The notes beneath the pieces were generated by a model. It was given only the letters and a program-made list of their open reading frames with translations, was not told where the DNA came from and made no database searches. Positions 56,167 through 59,411 of a DNA stretch of 64,000 nt are shown here, one piece after another. The stretch is from Parvibium lacunae. GTDB lineage: Bacteria; Pseudomonadota; Gammaproteobacteria; Burkholderiales; Burkholderiaceae_D. The stretch covers positions 372,001 to 436,000 of the forward strand of contig NZ_QPGB01000002.1 of the NCBI RefSeq assembly GCF_003335215.1, read 5' to 3'. Position 1 is the stretch's first letter. Every line of letters starts with the position of its first letter. The translations under genes and the position numbers were made by a program.

Positions 56167-56199
56167 ATTGTCTTTCTTTTTTGTTTTTTGGATAGTCTA

Positions 56200-57801
56200 A
56201 TGAGCCAAGTCACTGCCTTACCCCGTTCTGCTGATCTCAAATTACCAATCAAACAAGCCTTGCTCAGCGTATCGGATAAAACCGGGATCGTTGAATTCGC
56301 CCAAGCACTTCATGCACGCGGGGTTAACTTGCTATCAACCGGTGGCACGGCAAAACTGCTAGCAGAAAAAGGCATTCCCGTCACCGAGGTCGCAGATTAC
56401 ACCGGCTTTCCTGAAATGCTGGATGGGCGAGTCAAAACCCTGCACCCTAAAATTCATGGCGGCATTCTGGCTCGTCGCGACATCCCCGAACACATGGCGG
56501 CACTCGAAGCACATCAGATTGGTACGATTGATTTGCTGGTCGTCAATCTCTACCCCTTCCAGCAAACCGTCGCTAGAAGTGACTGCACGTTTGAGGATGC
56601 GATTGAAAATATCGATATCGGCGGCCCTACAATGCTGCGTTCCGCCGCGAAAAACCACCGTGATGTAACGGTTGTGGTAGACCCCGCTGACTACCCCACC
56701 GTACTCAACGACATGCAAGCTCACCAAGGCGCGGTTAGCAGCAGCACTAAACTCGCTCTGGCGAAAAAAGTGTTTGCCCATACGGCGGCCTATGACGGCG
56801 CGATCACCAATTACCTGACCAGCCTAGATGCAGAAAATATCAAAGGGGAATACCCGCAAGTCTTGAACTTCCAATTCCAAAAAGTGCAAGACATGCGCTA
56901 TGGTGAAAACCCGCACCAGAGCGCGGCGTTTTATCGCGATAGCCAAACCATTCCCGGCGCACTCGCCAACTACACCCAACTGCAAGGGAAAGAACTCTCT
57001 TACAACAACATCGCCGATGCCGATGCAGCGTGGGAATGCGTGAAAACCTTTGATGCCCCGGCCTGCGTCATCATCAAACATGCCAACCCTTGCGGCGTGG
57101 CGGTAGGAGCCGGTTGCCTTGATGCCTACAGCAAAGCCTTTAAGACCGATCCGACCTCTGCCTTTGGCGGCATTATTGCCTTCAACCGTGCGCTGGATGG
57201 TGCCGCTGCCGAAGCGGTGGCCAAACAATTTGTCGAGGTCGTGATTGCCCCGAGCATCAGCGCCGAAGCCCGCGCGGTGTTCGCCGCTAAACAAAATGTG
57301 CGCTTGCTTGAGGTGCCGATTGAAGACGGGGCTAACCGCTTTGACCTCAAGCGCGTCGGTGGCGGTTTACTGGTGCAAACGCCGGATATCAAAAACGTCT
57401 TGCCGACTGAACTTAAAGTCGTCAGCGAGCGTCACCCCACCGCACAAGAAATGGTGGACTTGATGTTCGCTTGGCGGGTAGCGAAATATGTGAAATCGAA
57501 CGCCATCGTTTTCTGCGGCAATGGCATGACCTTGGGTGTGGGTGCGGGGCAAATGAGCCGGGTCGATAGCGCCCGCATCGCCAGCATCAAAGCCCAAAAC
57601 GCCGGTCTGTCTCTGGCCGGCTCGGCCGTCGCGTCGGATGCCTTCTTCCCCTTCCGCGATGGCCTGGATGTGGTGGTCGATGCTGGCGCGACTTGCGTGA
57701 TTCAACCCGGTGGCTCGATGCGTGATGAAGAAGTGATCGCGGCGGCCAACGAGCGCAATGTCGTGATGCTGCTGACTGGTACGCGTCACTTCCGCCATTA
57801 A
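56200..57801 (+). CDS. purH: Bifunctional AICAR transformylase/IMP cyclohydrolase
   Basis: Last two steps of IMP synthesis. The 533-residue protein has an N-terminal MGS-like cyclohydrolase domain (about 10-155: [40 protein letters not shown]) and a C-terminal transformylase (about 200-533: [11 protein letters not shown] with catalytic Lys-His, [19 protein letters not shown]). The ATG at 56200 is preceded by a weak GGA site. The CDPS-type gene lies 49 bp downstream with no terminator between, so read-through is possible. Confidence 0.97.
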
Positions 57802-57850: not shown

Positions 57851-59092
57851 ATGTTAGATACCGACTACACCCCAGGCGAAGGCTCGATTTCATTTGGCAC
57901 ACATCGTTATAAAGCCAATCTCGATAAAATCTCGCCAGAGAGCCGCGCCACGCTCGCGCAAAGCGCAGAAGGCTGCTTGCTAGGAGTGTCGTTAGGAAGT
58001 GCCAACTTTGAAGGCGCGCGGCTGGAAGCCTGTATCGAATGGATTAGCGAGCGCTATTCAAGTTGCGGGATTGTGGTTGGCGATACCGTATACCGCCTCA
58101 CCCTGGCACTGCTAGAAGGGCTGGATGAAGAAACGGCACGGACCCGTGCCCTCGCCGCGGGACAGCAATTTTTGGAAACCTATGCCCCGCTGTTTCGGCA
58201 ATATGCCGGAAAGTGTACGTTCAGCTTTATTCCTTTCTCGCAGTTAGAAAGCCACGCCAAACTCCCTGAATATCACTCAGCCCTCCTGCATATGGCTGTC
58301 GCTGACGCCAATTTTGCGGCCTCAATCGACGCCTTTGCACAGCTTTACCTGAATCGCGGCGATAAACTCGACGTTAACCCCTTTGCTGTCTCGCTAGAGC
58401 GGGCGGCCGAGATTGCCAAATCTTACTTGCTTGAGGAATCCGCACTCTTTGCCGTTCTCGCTGATATGGGCTGGCAAGTCGTCGCTTACCCAGGCTCGAT
58501 TGATAGTATTGAAGGCCTGTGTGCAGGACGCTTCCAAGGCACCCCCGCCCCCCTAACCCAGCTTTCTTTTGCCGCGCTATCGTTGCGTAAACGTGGTCTC
58601 TACTTCACCGATGGCTCACAAAAGGTTGTGCGCCGCAGTGGCGATAGCTCCCTGGAAACCACACGACCAGGCATGGAGTTTTTGGCTGAATGTGACGACG
58701 CGACCTGGAACAAGCTATTCAAGCTCATGAAAATTCAAAAATTCGCCCCACGCGAAACCATTCTCGCCGCAGGTGATGAAGACCGGCGTTTATTTTTATT
58801 GGTAGAAGGGCGAGCAGAAGTCACGATTGAGCGCAGTGATGGTTCGCGTCAGCAACTGGCGATTCTCGAACAGGGTACCGTTGTCGGGGAGCAAGCCTTT
58901 TTAGATGGCTTGCCGCGCTCTGCTCAAGTGACGGCCCTGAATGAATGCGTTGCCCGCACGCTGAGCCAAAAAGATTTTCGGACCCTCAAACAGCAATCGC
59001 CTGAGCTTGCCATTGAAGTTTTAGCTGATATCGGTAAGACCATTTCCTTGCGTAGCCGTCGCTTACTCTCAGAAGTCCAGTACTTTGCCTAA
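57851..59092 (+). CDS. Cyclodipeptide synthase (XYP type) fused to a cyclic-nucleotide-binding domain
   Basis: A 413-residue soluble protein. Residues about 35-245 resemble tRNA-dependent cyclodipeptide synthases (CDPS), which make 2,5-diketopiperazines from two aminoacyl-tRNAs. Seen directly: catalytic-Ser motif GVSLGSANF (Ser47), Tyr192 and Glu196 in AKSYLLEESALF at the AlbC Tyr178/Glu182 spacing, and Tyr213-Pro214 in VVAYPGSID; Ser50 replaces Asn, which together define the XYP subfamily. Residues about 285-400 form a CRP-type cNMP domain with phosphate cassette GEQAFLDGLPRSAQV (Glu347, Arg356). No DNA-binding domain or membrane segment follows. Usual CDPS are about 240 residues and stand alone. 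The amino-acid and nucleotide ligands are unknown. Confidence 0.85.
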   Translation: MLDTDYTPGEGSISFGTHRYKANLDKISPESRATLAQSAEGCLLGVSLGSANFEGARLEACIEWISERYSSCGIVVGDTVYRLTLALLEGLDEETARTRALAAGQQFLETYAPLFRQYAGKCTFSFIPFSQLESHAKLPEYHSALLHMAVADANFAASIDAFAQLYLNRGDKLDVNPFAVSLERAAEIAKSYLLEESALFAVLADMGWQVVAYPGSIDSIEGLCAGRFQGTPAPLTQLSFAALSLRKRGLYFTDGSQKVVRRSGDSSLETTRPGMEFLAECDDATWNKLFKLMKIQKFAPRETILAAGDEDRRLFLLVEGRAEVTIERSDGSRQQLAILEQGTVVGEQAFLDGLPRSAQVTALNECVARTLSQKDFRTLKQQSPELAIEVLADIGKTISLRSRRLLSEVQYFA

Positions 59093-59137
59093 GGCAGAAG
59101 ACGCACGCCACAGCCCCGCTCCCTGCCGACAAAAAAT

Positions 59138-59162
59138 AACGCCAGCCTTTTGGGCTGGCGTT
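59138..59162 (-). terminator. Hairpin terminator, minus-strand orientation
   Basis: AACGCCAGCC-TTTTG-GGCTGGCGTT, a perfect 10-bp stem. On the minus strand it is followed by TATTTTTT, so it backs up termination of the tRNA operon; on the plus strand it lies 46 bp after the CDPS gene without a T-run. Confidence 0.8.
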
Positions 59163-59170
59163 ACTAGCTA

Positions 59171-59200
59171 AAAAAATACCCGCTGATTGCGGGTATTTTT
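59171..59200. terminator. Bidirectional terminator between CDPS gene and tRNA operon
   Basis: AAAAATACCCGC (59172-59183), loop TGATT, GCGGGTATTTTT (59189-59200): a 12-bp stem with A-run and T-run on either side. It begins three bases after the tRNA-Glu CCA end on the minus strand and can also stop plus-strand transcription. Confidence 0.92.
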
Positions 59201-59203
59201 ATT

Positions 59204-59279
59204 TGGCGTCCCCACGGGGATTCGAACCCCGGTTATCGCCGTGAAAGGGCGGTGTCCTAGGCCTCTAGACGATGGGGAC
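59204..59279 (-). tRNA. tRNA-Glu (anticodon TTC)
   Basis: 76 nt including encoded CCA. The acceptor stem GTCCCCA pairs with TGGGGAC, the anticodon arm reads CCGCC-CTTTCAC-GGCG with TTC at the centre, and the T-arm has GGTTCGAATCC. It is the last gene of gltX-tRNA-Ala-tRNA-Glu, so the synthetase and its substrate tRNA are probably on one transcript. Confidence 0.97.
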
Positions 59280-59335
59280 AGAAACTTGTCTGTCGATACG
59301 TGATGTAAAACGTATCAGCCTATTGCGTATTTGTT

Positions 59336-59411
<76 letters not shown>

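What the first reader, a model, noticed from the sequence alone, without database searches (positions are those of the whole stretch)
57851..59092. Cyclodipeptide synthase fused to a cyclic-nucleotide-binding domain
The N-terminal two thirds carry the catalytic Ser47, Tyr192/Glu196 and the Tyr213-Pro214 pair that mark the XYP subfamily of tRNA-dependent cyclodipeptide synthases. The C-terminal third is a CRP-like cNMP module with Glu347 and Arg356 in the phosphate cassette and no DNA-binding part. Such a fusion would be a diketopiperazine synthase switched by a second messenger, drawing on the charged-tRNA pool. CDPS are known mainly as stand-alone enzymes next to tailoring oxidases; none is adjacent here. 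I know of no described function for this architecture, though homologues may be in databases.
Basis: partly seen in the sequence, partly recalled or inferred. Interest (0 to 1): 0.92.

Follow-up and report, generated by a model that had tools for sequence, protein, structure and literature searches.

The report
Dipeptide-making enzyme with cyclic-nucleotide sensor
A bacterial gene joins an enzyme that turns two charged tRNAs into a cyclic dipeptide to a sensor domain that probably binds cyclic AMP, so the cell could switch this chemistry on or off with a second messenger, a kind of control for which we found no description.

Summary
Window 57851-59092 (+) is one 413-aa ORF. Residues ~15-250 are an XYP-type cyclodipeptide synthase (CDPS; TIGR04539 2e-23, Pfam CDPS 6.6e-9); residues ~278-405 are a CRP/PKA-like cNMP-binding domain (Pfam 3.2e-19) with no DNA-binding part. 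The four catalytic CDPS residues and the Tyr-Pro signature align, and the modelled CDPS half matches a solved CDPS (9j61) at Z 29.2. The fusion is no artefact: another genus of the same family has a full-length orthologue, 50% identical, in an unrelated neighbourhood. Both halves are about equally conserved, and the phosphate cassette is among the most conserved stretches. The CDPS half is nearest to bicyclomycin-type CDPSs, but neither genome matches the bicyclomycin-type oxygenase used as query. Both genomes encode CHASE2-type class III cyclases, and the base-contact position is Ser/Thr, as in cAMP-binding CRPs. Best reading: a self-contained diketopiperazine synthase gated by a cyclic nucleotide, probably cAMP. 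Catalysis, ligand binding and gating are untested. CDPS fusions and cNMP-gated enzymes are each known; this pairing was not found in the papers searched. New variant of a known kind.

The parts
57851..59092 (+). CDPS-cNMP fusion gene, 413 aa
   Evidence: full-length orthologue 50% identical in G926
57893..58600 (+). XYP cyclodipeptide synthase domain, residues about 15-250
   Evidence: TIGR04539 27-234 and Pfam CDPS 34-200; model against 9j61 Z 29.2, rmsd 1.9 over 212 residues
57989..57991 (+). codon of Ser47, nucleophile (AlbC Ser37)
   Evidence: invariant in the alignments
58424..58438 (+). codons Tyr192 to Glu196 (AlbC Tyr178, Glu182)
   Evidence: invariant; roles from passages of PMC13062777 and PMC7566563
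58487..58492 (+). codons Tyr213-Pro214 (AlbC 202-203), XYP signature
   Evidence: invariant; stretch 213-220 is 8 of 8 identical in the orthologue
58601..58681 (+). linker, residues about 251-277, running straight on from the last CDPS strand (LSLRKRGL)
   Evidence: least conserved of the segments measured, 10 of 27 identical
58682..59065 (+). cNMP-binding domain, residues about 278-405
   Evidence: Pfam cNMP_binding 296-382, 3.2e-19; 70 of 128 identical in the orthologue
58877..58936 (+). phosphate-binding cassette, residues 343-362 with Gly346, Glu347, Pro355, Arg356, Ser357, Ala358
   Evidence: 17 of 20 identical in the orthologue, the highest value for any 20-residue window, shared with overlapping windows
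59054..59056 (+). codon of Ser402, aligned to CRP Ser128, the adenine-contact position
   Evidence: alignment to 1i6x; Thr in the orthologue
56188..57801 (+). purH, ending 49 bases upstream on the same strand, probably co-transcribed (inference)
   Evidence: Pfam; no terminator-like or promoter-like site listed on the + strand between the genes
59135..59165 (.). terminator-like hairpin after the gene
   Evidence: 13-pair stem and T-run on the - strand; a further GC hairpin with a T-run on the + strand at about 59172-59203, read by eye

Best explanation
The gene encodes a cyclodipeptide synthase whose activity is controlled in cis by a cyclic nucleotide, most likely cAMP. Shown by computation: one polypeptide; an XYP CDPS domain with the full catalytic set and the CDPS fold; a cNMP domain with a complete phosphate cassette; the same fusion conserved in another genus; class III cyclases in both genomes. 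Inferred: the CDPS half takes two aminoacyl-tRNAs and forms a diketopiperazine, probably of mainly aliphatic residues. The acceptor stem would lie on the basic strands beta2 and beta7. The cNMP domain is attached directly after beta7, so nucleotide binding could open or close the tRNA-binding face, much as cAMP relieves autoinhibition in mycobacterial Pat. Since no tailoring enzyme was found beside the gene in either genome, the plain cyclic dipeptide is probably the product, perhaps a diffusible signal made in a given nutrient state.
For: HMM hits to both halves. Solved relative 9j61 at 1.3e-37 and model Z 29.2 over 212 residues. Catalytic residues invariant. Orthologue in G926: 50% identity over the whole length, CDPS part 119 of 236, cNMP part 70 of 128, cassette 17 of 20; its TIGR04539 score is 67.2 (cut-off 45). 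Cyclases: 1 in G000 and 2 in G926, all CHASE2 plus cyclase domain. Ser402, Thr in the orthologue, aligns with CRP Ser128; passages of PMC11224242 say that Ser/Thr there goes with cAMP, Asn with cUMP and Glu with cGMP. Precedent for gating: MsPat, PMC8556138 passages. No bicyclomycin-type oxygenase in G000 or G926, with 5 matches in the control G1070.
Against: No activity or ligand binding has been measured. The cNMP half was not modelled with confidence (pLDDT under 50 in most of it; mean 51.5 when folded alone), so contact between the domains is unseen. CRP Thr127 is replaced by Arg401. The Ser/Thr argument rests on one column; Leu stands there in the other five cNMP rows. The orthologue's CDPS half falls below the Pfam cut-off (24.0 against 27). 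No neighbour among those scanned is shared between the two loci. The class III cyclases lie far from the gene in both genomes, and what they make is unknown.
Confidence: 0.6

Rival explanations
1. The cNMP-like domain does not sense a nucleotide; it serves for dimerisation or for docking to a partner, and the CDPS is constitutive.
For: cNMP-like domains often dimerise through the C-helix (recalled), and family 2B encapsulins carry one (a hit at 2.9e-11; that their ligand is not known is recalled). Arg replaces CRP Thr127.
Against: Gly, Glu, Arg, Ser and Ala of the cassette are intact, and the cassette is among the most conserved parts of the protein (17 of 20); cyclases are present in both genomes.
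Confidence: 0.17
2. It is a nucleotide-triggered effector: when a cyclic nucleotide rises (stress or phage), the CDPS drains charged tRNAs and slows translation, as Pycsar receptors turn on TIR or membrane effectors.
For: Same logic of sensor plus enzyme. The cNMP half hits PADLOC TIR-effector and PycTIR models (5.6e-14 and 6.5e-14). Patchy distribution: 1 of 43 genomes in genus g32.
Against: The Pfam cNMP model (69.1 bits) and the CRP model (52.7) score higher than PycTIR (50.0), so the PADLOC hits are generic. Class III cyclase matches lie on another contig in G000 and more than 2 Mb away in G926, not beside the gene. The base-contact residue is Ser/Thr and not the Asn of PycTIR. Known CDPSs are expressed in E. 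coli without being described as toxic (recalled).
Confidence: 0.1
3. The CDPS half has lost catalysis and acts as a charged-tRNA or amino-acid sensor that works together with the cNMP half.
For: The P1 pocket differs from that of the characterised relative (LGVGFLFV against FGLGCVFM).
Against: All four catalytic residues and the XYP signature are kept in both orthologues, with local identity of 8 of 9 (192-200) and 8 of 8 (213-220).
Confidence: 0.07

Closest known systems
Bicyclomycin-type CDPS (BcmA; Actinokineospora spheciospongiae EG49 CDPS; 9j61 from Streptomyces sapporonensis, whose bicyclomycin link is recalled)
   Same: XYP CDPS fold, same catalytic residues, Gly at P1 position 67, FxYRG in P2; 32-33% identity
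   Different: L041 and L042 are single-domain enzymes beside a 2OG-Fe(II) oxygenase gene; here a cNMP domain is fused, no match to such an oxygenase is found in the genome, and P1 differs
Known CDPS fusions (NYH CDPS with C-terminal P450, methyltransferase or ABC-transporter domain; [quoted passage not shown]
   Same: CDPS first, extra domain at the C-terminus (PMC5816076 passages)
   Different: The named added domains are tailoring or transport domains, not a second-messenger sensor; the Legionellaceae domain was not examined here
Mycobacterial cAMP-gated acetyltransferase Pat (MSMEG_5458, Rv0998)
   Same: Enzyme plus CRP-like cNMP domain in one chain; the NCBIfam Pat model hits our cNMP half (2.9e-8, far under its cut-off); cAMP relieves autoinhibition (PMC8556138 passages)
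   Different: The enzyme is a GNAT and the sensor is N-terminal
Pycsar receptor PycTIR
   Same: cNMP domain driving an enzyme domain
   Different: Asn at the base-contact position and a partner pyrimidine cyclase in the system (PMC11224242 passages); TIR effector

Membership tests
Cyclodipeptide synthase, XYP subfamily | CDPS family profile above the curated cut-off | tested here: met
   TIGR04539 83.1 bits (cut-off 45), Pfam CDPS 36.3 (cut-off 27); orthologue 67.2 and 24.0, the latter below the cut-off
Cyclodipeptide synthase, XYP subfamily | Ser37, Tyr178, Glu182, Tyr202 (AlbC numbering) | tested here: met
   Ser47, Tyr192, Glu196, Tyr213 by alignment; pocket coordinates not inspected
Cyclodipeptide synthase, XYP subfamily | Pro at 203, any residue at 40 | tested here: met
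   Pro214 and Ser50; Pro and Thr in the orthologue
Cyclodipeptide synthase, XYP subfamily | Rossmann CDPS fold | tested here: met
   model Z 29.2 to 9j61, 21.6 to Nbra-CDPS, 16.1 to AlbC 3oqv
Cyclodipeptide synthase, XYP subfamily | Makes a cyclodipeptide from aminoacyl-tRNAs | not testable with these tools
   needs an assay
cNMP-binding domain (CRP/PKA type) | Family profile above the cut-off | tested here: met
   69.1 bits, cut-off 27.5
cNMP-binding domain (CRP/PKA type) | Gly-Glu and Arg of the phosphate cassette | tested here: met
   Gly346, Glu347, Arg356, kept in the orthologue
cNMP-binding domain (CRP/PKA type) | cNMP fold seen in a confident model | tested here: inconclusive
   low pLDDT in both models
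cNMP-binding domain (CRP/PKA type) | Binds a cyclic nucleotide | not testable with these tools
   needs a binding assay
Bicyclomycin pathway | bcm-type 2OG oxygenases in the genome | tested here: not met
   0 matches in G000 and G926, 5 in the control G1070, with one query (L042:6678-7676)
Pycsar receptor | Adjacent pyrimidine cyclase | tested here: not met
   PF00211 matches in G000 and G926 all lie far from the gene; none among the neighbours scanned. A cyclase too divergent for PF00211 would be missed

The most novel reading that the evidence does not exclude
A cAMP-gated drain on the charged-tRNA pool: when cAMP changes, the CDPS turns on, consumes aliphatic aminoacyl-tRNAs, releases a cyclic dipeptide as a second signal, and so ties carbon state directly to translation and to cell-to-cell signalling in one protein.
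Probability: 0.15. Interest if true: 0.85.

Novelty: new variant of a known kind. Interest (0 to 1): 0.62.

Why it matters
CDPSs are, as far as I recall, regarded as enzymes without allosteric control, regulated by transcription of their cluster; the review passages seen speak of transcriptional regulators only. A built-in cyclic-nucleotide sensor would be the first allosteric switch on a CDPS that I know of. It would give a handle on when and why bacteria make plain cyclic dipeptides, and would offer a ligand-switchable biocatalyst.

Tried and rejected
Chance or assembly artefact: rejected, since both halves lie in one frame and a full-length orthologue exists in another genus.

Bicyclomycin pathway member: rejected for want of the oxygenases. 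A first search without a control found nothing and was repeated with G1070 as control.

Dedicated cAE-type synthase suggested by the adjacent tRNA-Glu, tRNA-Ala and gltX: not supported. The orthologue has no tRNA gene within its 19.5 kb, and our P2 motif FLYRGID is unlike the motif NTYRKLT listed for a Glu-accepting pocket.

Phage or plasmid origin: no full-length match in 72,556 plasmid records or 50,697 phage records. Three protein-based scans of viral contigs found no relative and one pattern scan found no match.

Structure of the cNMP half: both models are too poor to use, so a fold search of that half was not run. In the whole-model fold search the listed rows cover residues of the CDPS half; no cNMP-domain chain appears in the 50 rows shown, which says nothing about that half.

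The single genome-contig scan used narrow patterns and found only 2 loci, so the named-organism survey of fusions is shallow. The host organism could not be named; 'betaproteobacterium, probably Burkholderiales' is my inference from gene order.

Weak TIGR04539 hits L037, L039 and L045 do not look like CDPSs by eye.

Full report
What is there. The ORF at 57851-59092 (+) encodes 413 aa. The N-terminal part hits TIGR04539 (27-234, 2e-23) and Pfam CDPS (34-200, 6.6e-9); the C-terminal part hits Pfam cNMP_binding (296-382, 3.2e-19). In the own genome (2.63 Mb, 18 contigs) the CDPS family has this one match, and the protein query has three further, weaker matches, all to the cNMP half. The best solved relative is 9j61, a CDPS from Streptomyces sapporonensis (1.3e-37).

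CDPS half. Alignment with 9j61 and with loci from two named genomes, Actinokineospora spheciospongiae EG49 (L041) and Paraburkholderia humisilvae (L042), places Ser47, Tyr192, Glu196, Tyr213 and Pro214 on the catalytic and XYP positions. In the AlphaFold model the 10-residue blocks from 21 to 240 have mean pLDDT 68-94, except 171-180 at 42; block 241-250 is 65 and everything before 21 is under 36. The model superposes on 9j61 with Z 29.2, rmsd 1.9 over 212 residues, on Nbra-CDPS with Z 21.6 and on AlbC with Z 16.1. I did not inspect the pocket in coordinates. L041 and L042 each lie next to a 2OG-Fe(II) oxygenase gene (Pfam PF03171), and passages of PMC5930311 name Actinokineospora spheciospongiae as a carrier of a bcm-like cluster. 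That L042 is a bcm-like locus is my inference. A tree of 22 CDPS rows joins our protein and its orthologue at 99/99 and leaves their place beside the bicyclomycin-type rows unresolved; the tree tool warned of long branches among other rows.

Pocket reading, low confidence. PMC5816076 (sections 11 and 12 and passages seen) lists P1 and P2 motifs; enzyme names are missing from the held table. The row FGLGCVFM / FRYRGFS matches L041 at 15 of 15 positions, read by me from the alignment, which fixes the columns. On these our protein reads LGVGFLFV / FLYRGID and the orthologue MGVGLLFL / FAYRGID. The P2 motif is nearest to the row FFYRGID, which by its product I take to be CDPS 89 (mainly cyclo-Ala-Pro); its P1 motif, FAYVHAVN, is unlike ours. 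I predict an aliphatic product, no more.

cNMP half. The cassette reads G346-E347-Q-A-F-L-D-G-L-P355-R356-S357-A358. The same signature (GEQ, F, DG, PRSA) is found in four cNMP proteins with open frames of 163-192 aa from related genomes, L005, L006, L011 and L018. I fetched the surroundings of all four: in two (L048, L049) the cNMP gene lies next to an 884-891-aa flavin oxidoreductase gene, while in the other two (L050, L051) it lies, by eye, next to a sensor-kinase-like gene. Ser402 aligns to CRP Ser128, with no gap between the cassette Arg and this position, and is Thr in the orthologue; in the other five rows the residue is Leu. Passages of PMC11224242 link Ser/Thr there with cAMP, Asn with cUMP and Glu with cGMP. 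This favours cAMP but rests on one column. Neither model of this half is usable.

Is the fusion real and kept? A family-wide draw of 392 genomes gave 4 with a match, 3 of them over the TIGR04539 cut-off: our own, G1070 (single-domain, beside a 2OG oxygenase gene) and G926; the fourth, G878, is a weak hit that does not look like a CDPS. G926 encodes a 417-aa fusion, 50% identical over the whole length. It hits both Pfam domains, the CDPS one at 24.0 bits, just under Pfam's cut-off of 27, and TIGR04539 at 67.2 bits, over the cut-off. Identity is 119 of 236 in the CDPS part, 70 of 128 in the cNMP part, 10 of 27 in the linker and 17 of 20 in the cassette, the highest value for any 20-residue window, shared with overlapping windows. 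So both halves, and above all the ligand cassette, are kept.

How rare. Of 43 genomes in G926's genus, 1 (G926 itself) has a CDPS hit. In the order draw 3 of 399 genomes hit, 1 over cut-off; in the phylum draw 2 of 398, 1 over cut-off; in the class draw 18 of 369, 6 over cut-off. Our own genome is counted in each of these three draws, and the draws overlap. Besides our own there were 21 matches in the class draw; 19 had loci, and none of the 19 has a cNMP domain by tblastn at E 0.01. Nor was one found in L036-L039, L043 or L045. In the relatives search of 119 genomes none of the listed matches other than our own covers both halves (some matches were not listed). So 2 fusions are known from these draws.

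Surroundings. The gene follows purH by 49 bases on the same strand, with no promoter-like or terminator-like site listed on that strand between them. It ends at a terminator-like hairpin, then tRNA-Glu, tRNA-Ala and gltX on the other strand. Of 30 genomes searched for purH, 28 matched. In the 28 loci, our own has this gene next; by eye 12 show a ruvC-like and 6 a purD-like frame downstream, and in 9 the printed frames do not decide. No CDPS match was listed in those 27 other genomes. In G926 the neighbours are unrelated: small hypothetical genes, a glyoxalase-like gene, a 2'-5' RNA ligase-like gene and, about 2.8 kb off, a CRP-type regulator. The gene thus sits in two unrelated places without tailoring partners among the genes scanned. 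GC by codon position is 0.61, 0.45, 0.54; the third position is lower than in four neighbours (0.59-0.64), which may hint at acquisition.

Source of ligand. A class III cyclase match is present once in G000 (another contig) and twice in G926 (over 2 Mb away), each with a CHASE2 domain. Whether they make cAMP or cGMP is not known; class I and II cyclases were not searched for.

Mechanism. Passages of PMC7566563 and PMC13062777 state that XYP enzymes hold the tRNA acceptor stem on basic strands beta2 and beta7. In our protein the stretch LSLRKRGL, which I take as beta7 (strand 239-247 in the model), runs directly into the linker. I therefore propose that the cNMP domain sits near the tRNA-binding face and that nucleotide binding alters access, by analogy with MsPat, where cAMP relieves autoinhibition (PMC8556138 passages). 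This step is inference.

Literature. No paper held both 'cyclodipeptide synthase' and 'cyclic nucleotide-binding' (0 papers). In the 30 papers listed of 182 the term 'cnmp-binding' had no occurrence. In one search, 1 of the 20 listed of 86 held 'cyclic nucleotide', a diatom pheromone paper. In one search none of the 15 listed of 4,474 held the CDPS term. Passages seen of PMC2922099, PMC5767969 and PMC11610984 show no such fusion; I did not read these papers in full. The search covers open-licence papers only, and sequence databases may hold the architecture unnamed.

Verdict. Architecture certain; CDPS activity very likely; nucleotide binding likely; gating the best single reading at about 0.6. 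New variant of a known kind.

Noticed in passing
L040 (Cupriavidus necator C39 plasmid p1, NZ_CP068436.1 about 99677-99883): A short remnant of a bicyclomycin-type CDPS gene (45% identical to ours over residues 17-85) lies between an arginyl-tRNA synthetase gene and a NUDIX gene on a 1.19-Mb plasmid.
   Followed up: partly
L109 1171-2145 (G1171:C124): A single-domain 324-aa CDPS with an N-terminal extension, 32% identical to our CDPS half; the only other ORF of 120 aa or more on its 4.6-kb contig is an NMT1-like binding protein.
   Followed up: partly
L087 (G000:C3:236500-246000): A signalling cluster in the own genome: CHASE2-class III cyclase, a cNMP-rhodanese fusion protein and a GAF-MshEN-T2SSE ATPase side by side.
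   Followed up: partly
L048, L049: Small cNMP proteins with the same cassette signature as the fusion sit beside an 884-891-aa flavin oxidoreductase with Fer2 and rubredoxin-reductase C-terminal domains.
   Followed up: partly
window 59204-59411: tRNA-Glu and tRNA-Ala genes lie convergent to the CDPS gene, next to gltX; the pairing matches the substrates of cAE-type CDPSs, but no tRNA gene lies within the 19.5 kb around the orthologue.
   Followed up: partly
L036, L038 (G110): A genome of the same order with two CDPS-like matches, one followed by a PAS-GerE (LuxR-type) regulator gene.
   Followed up: partly
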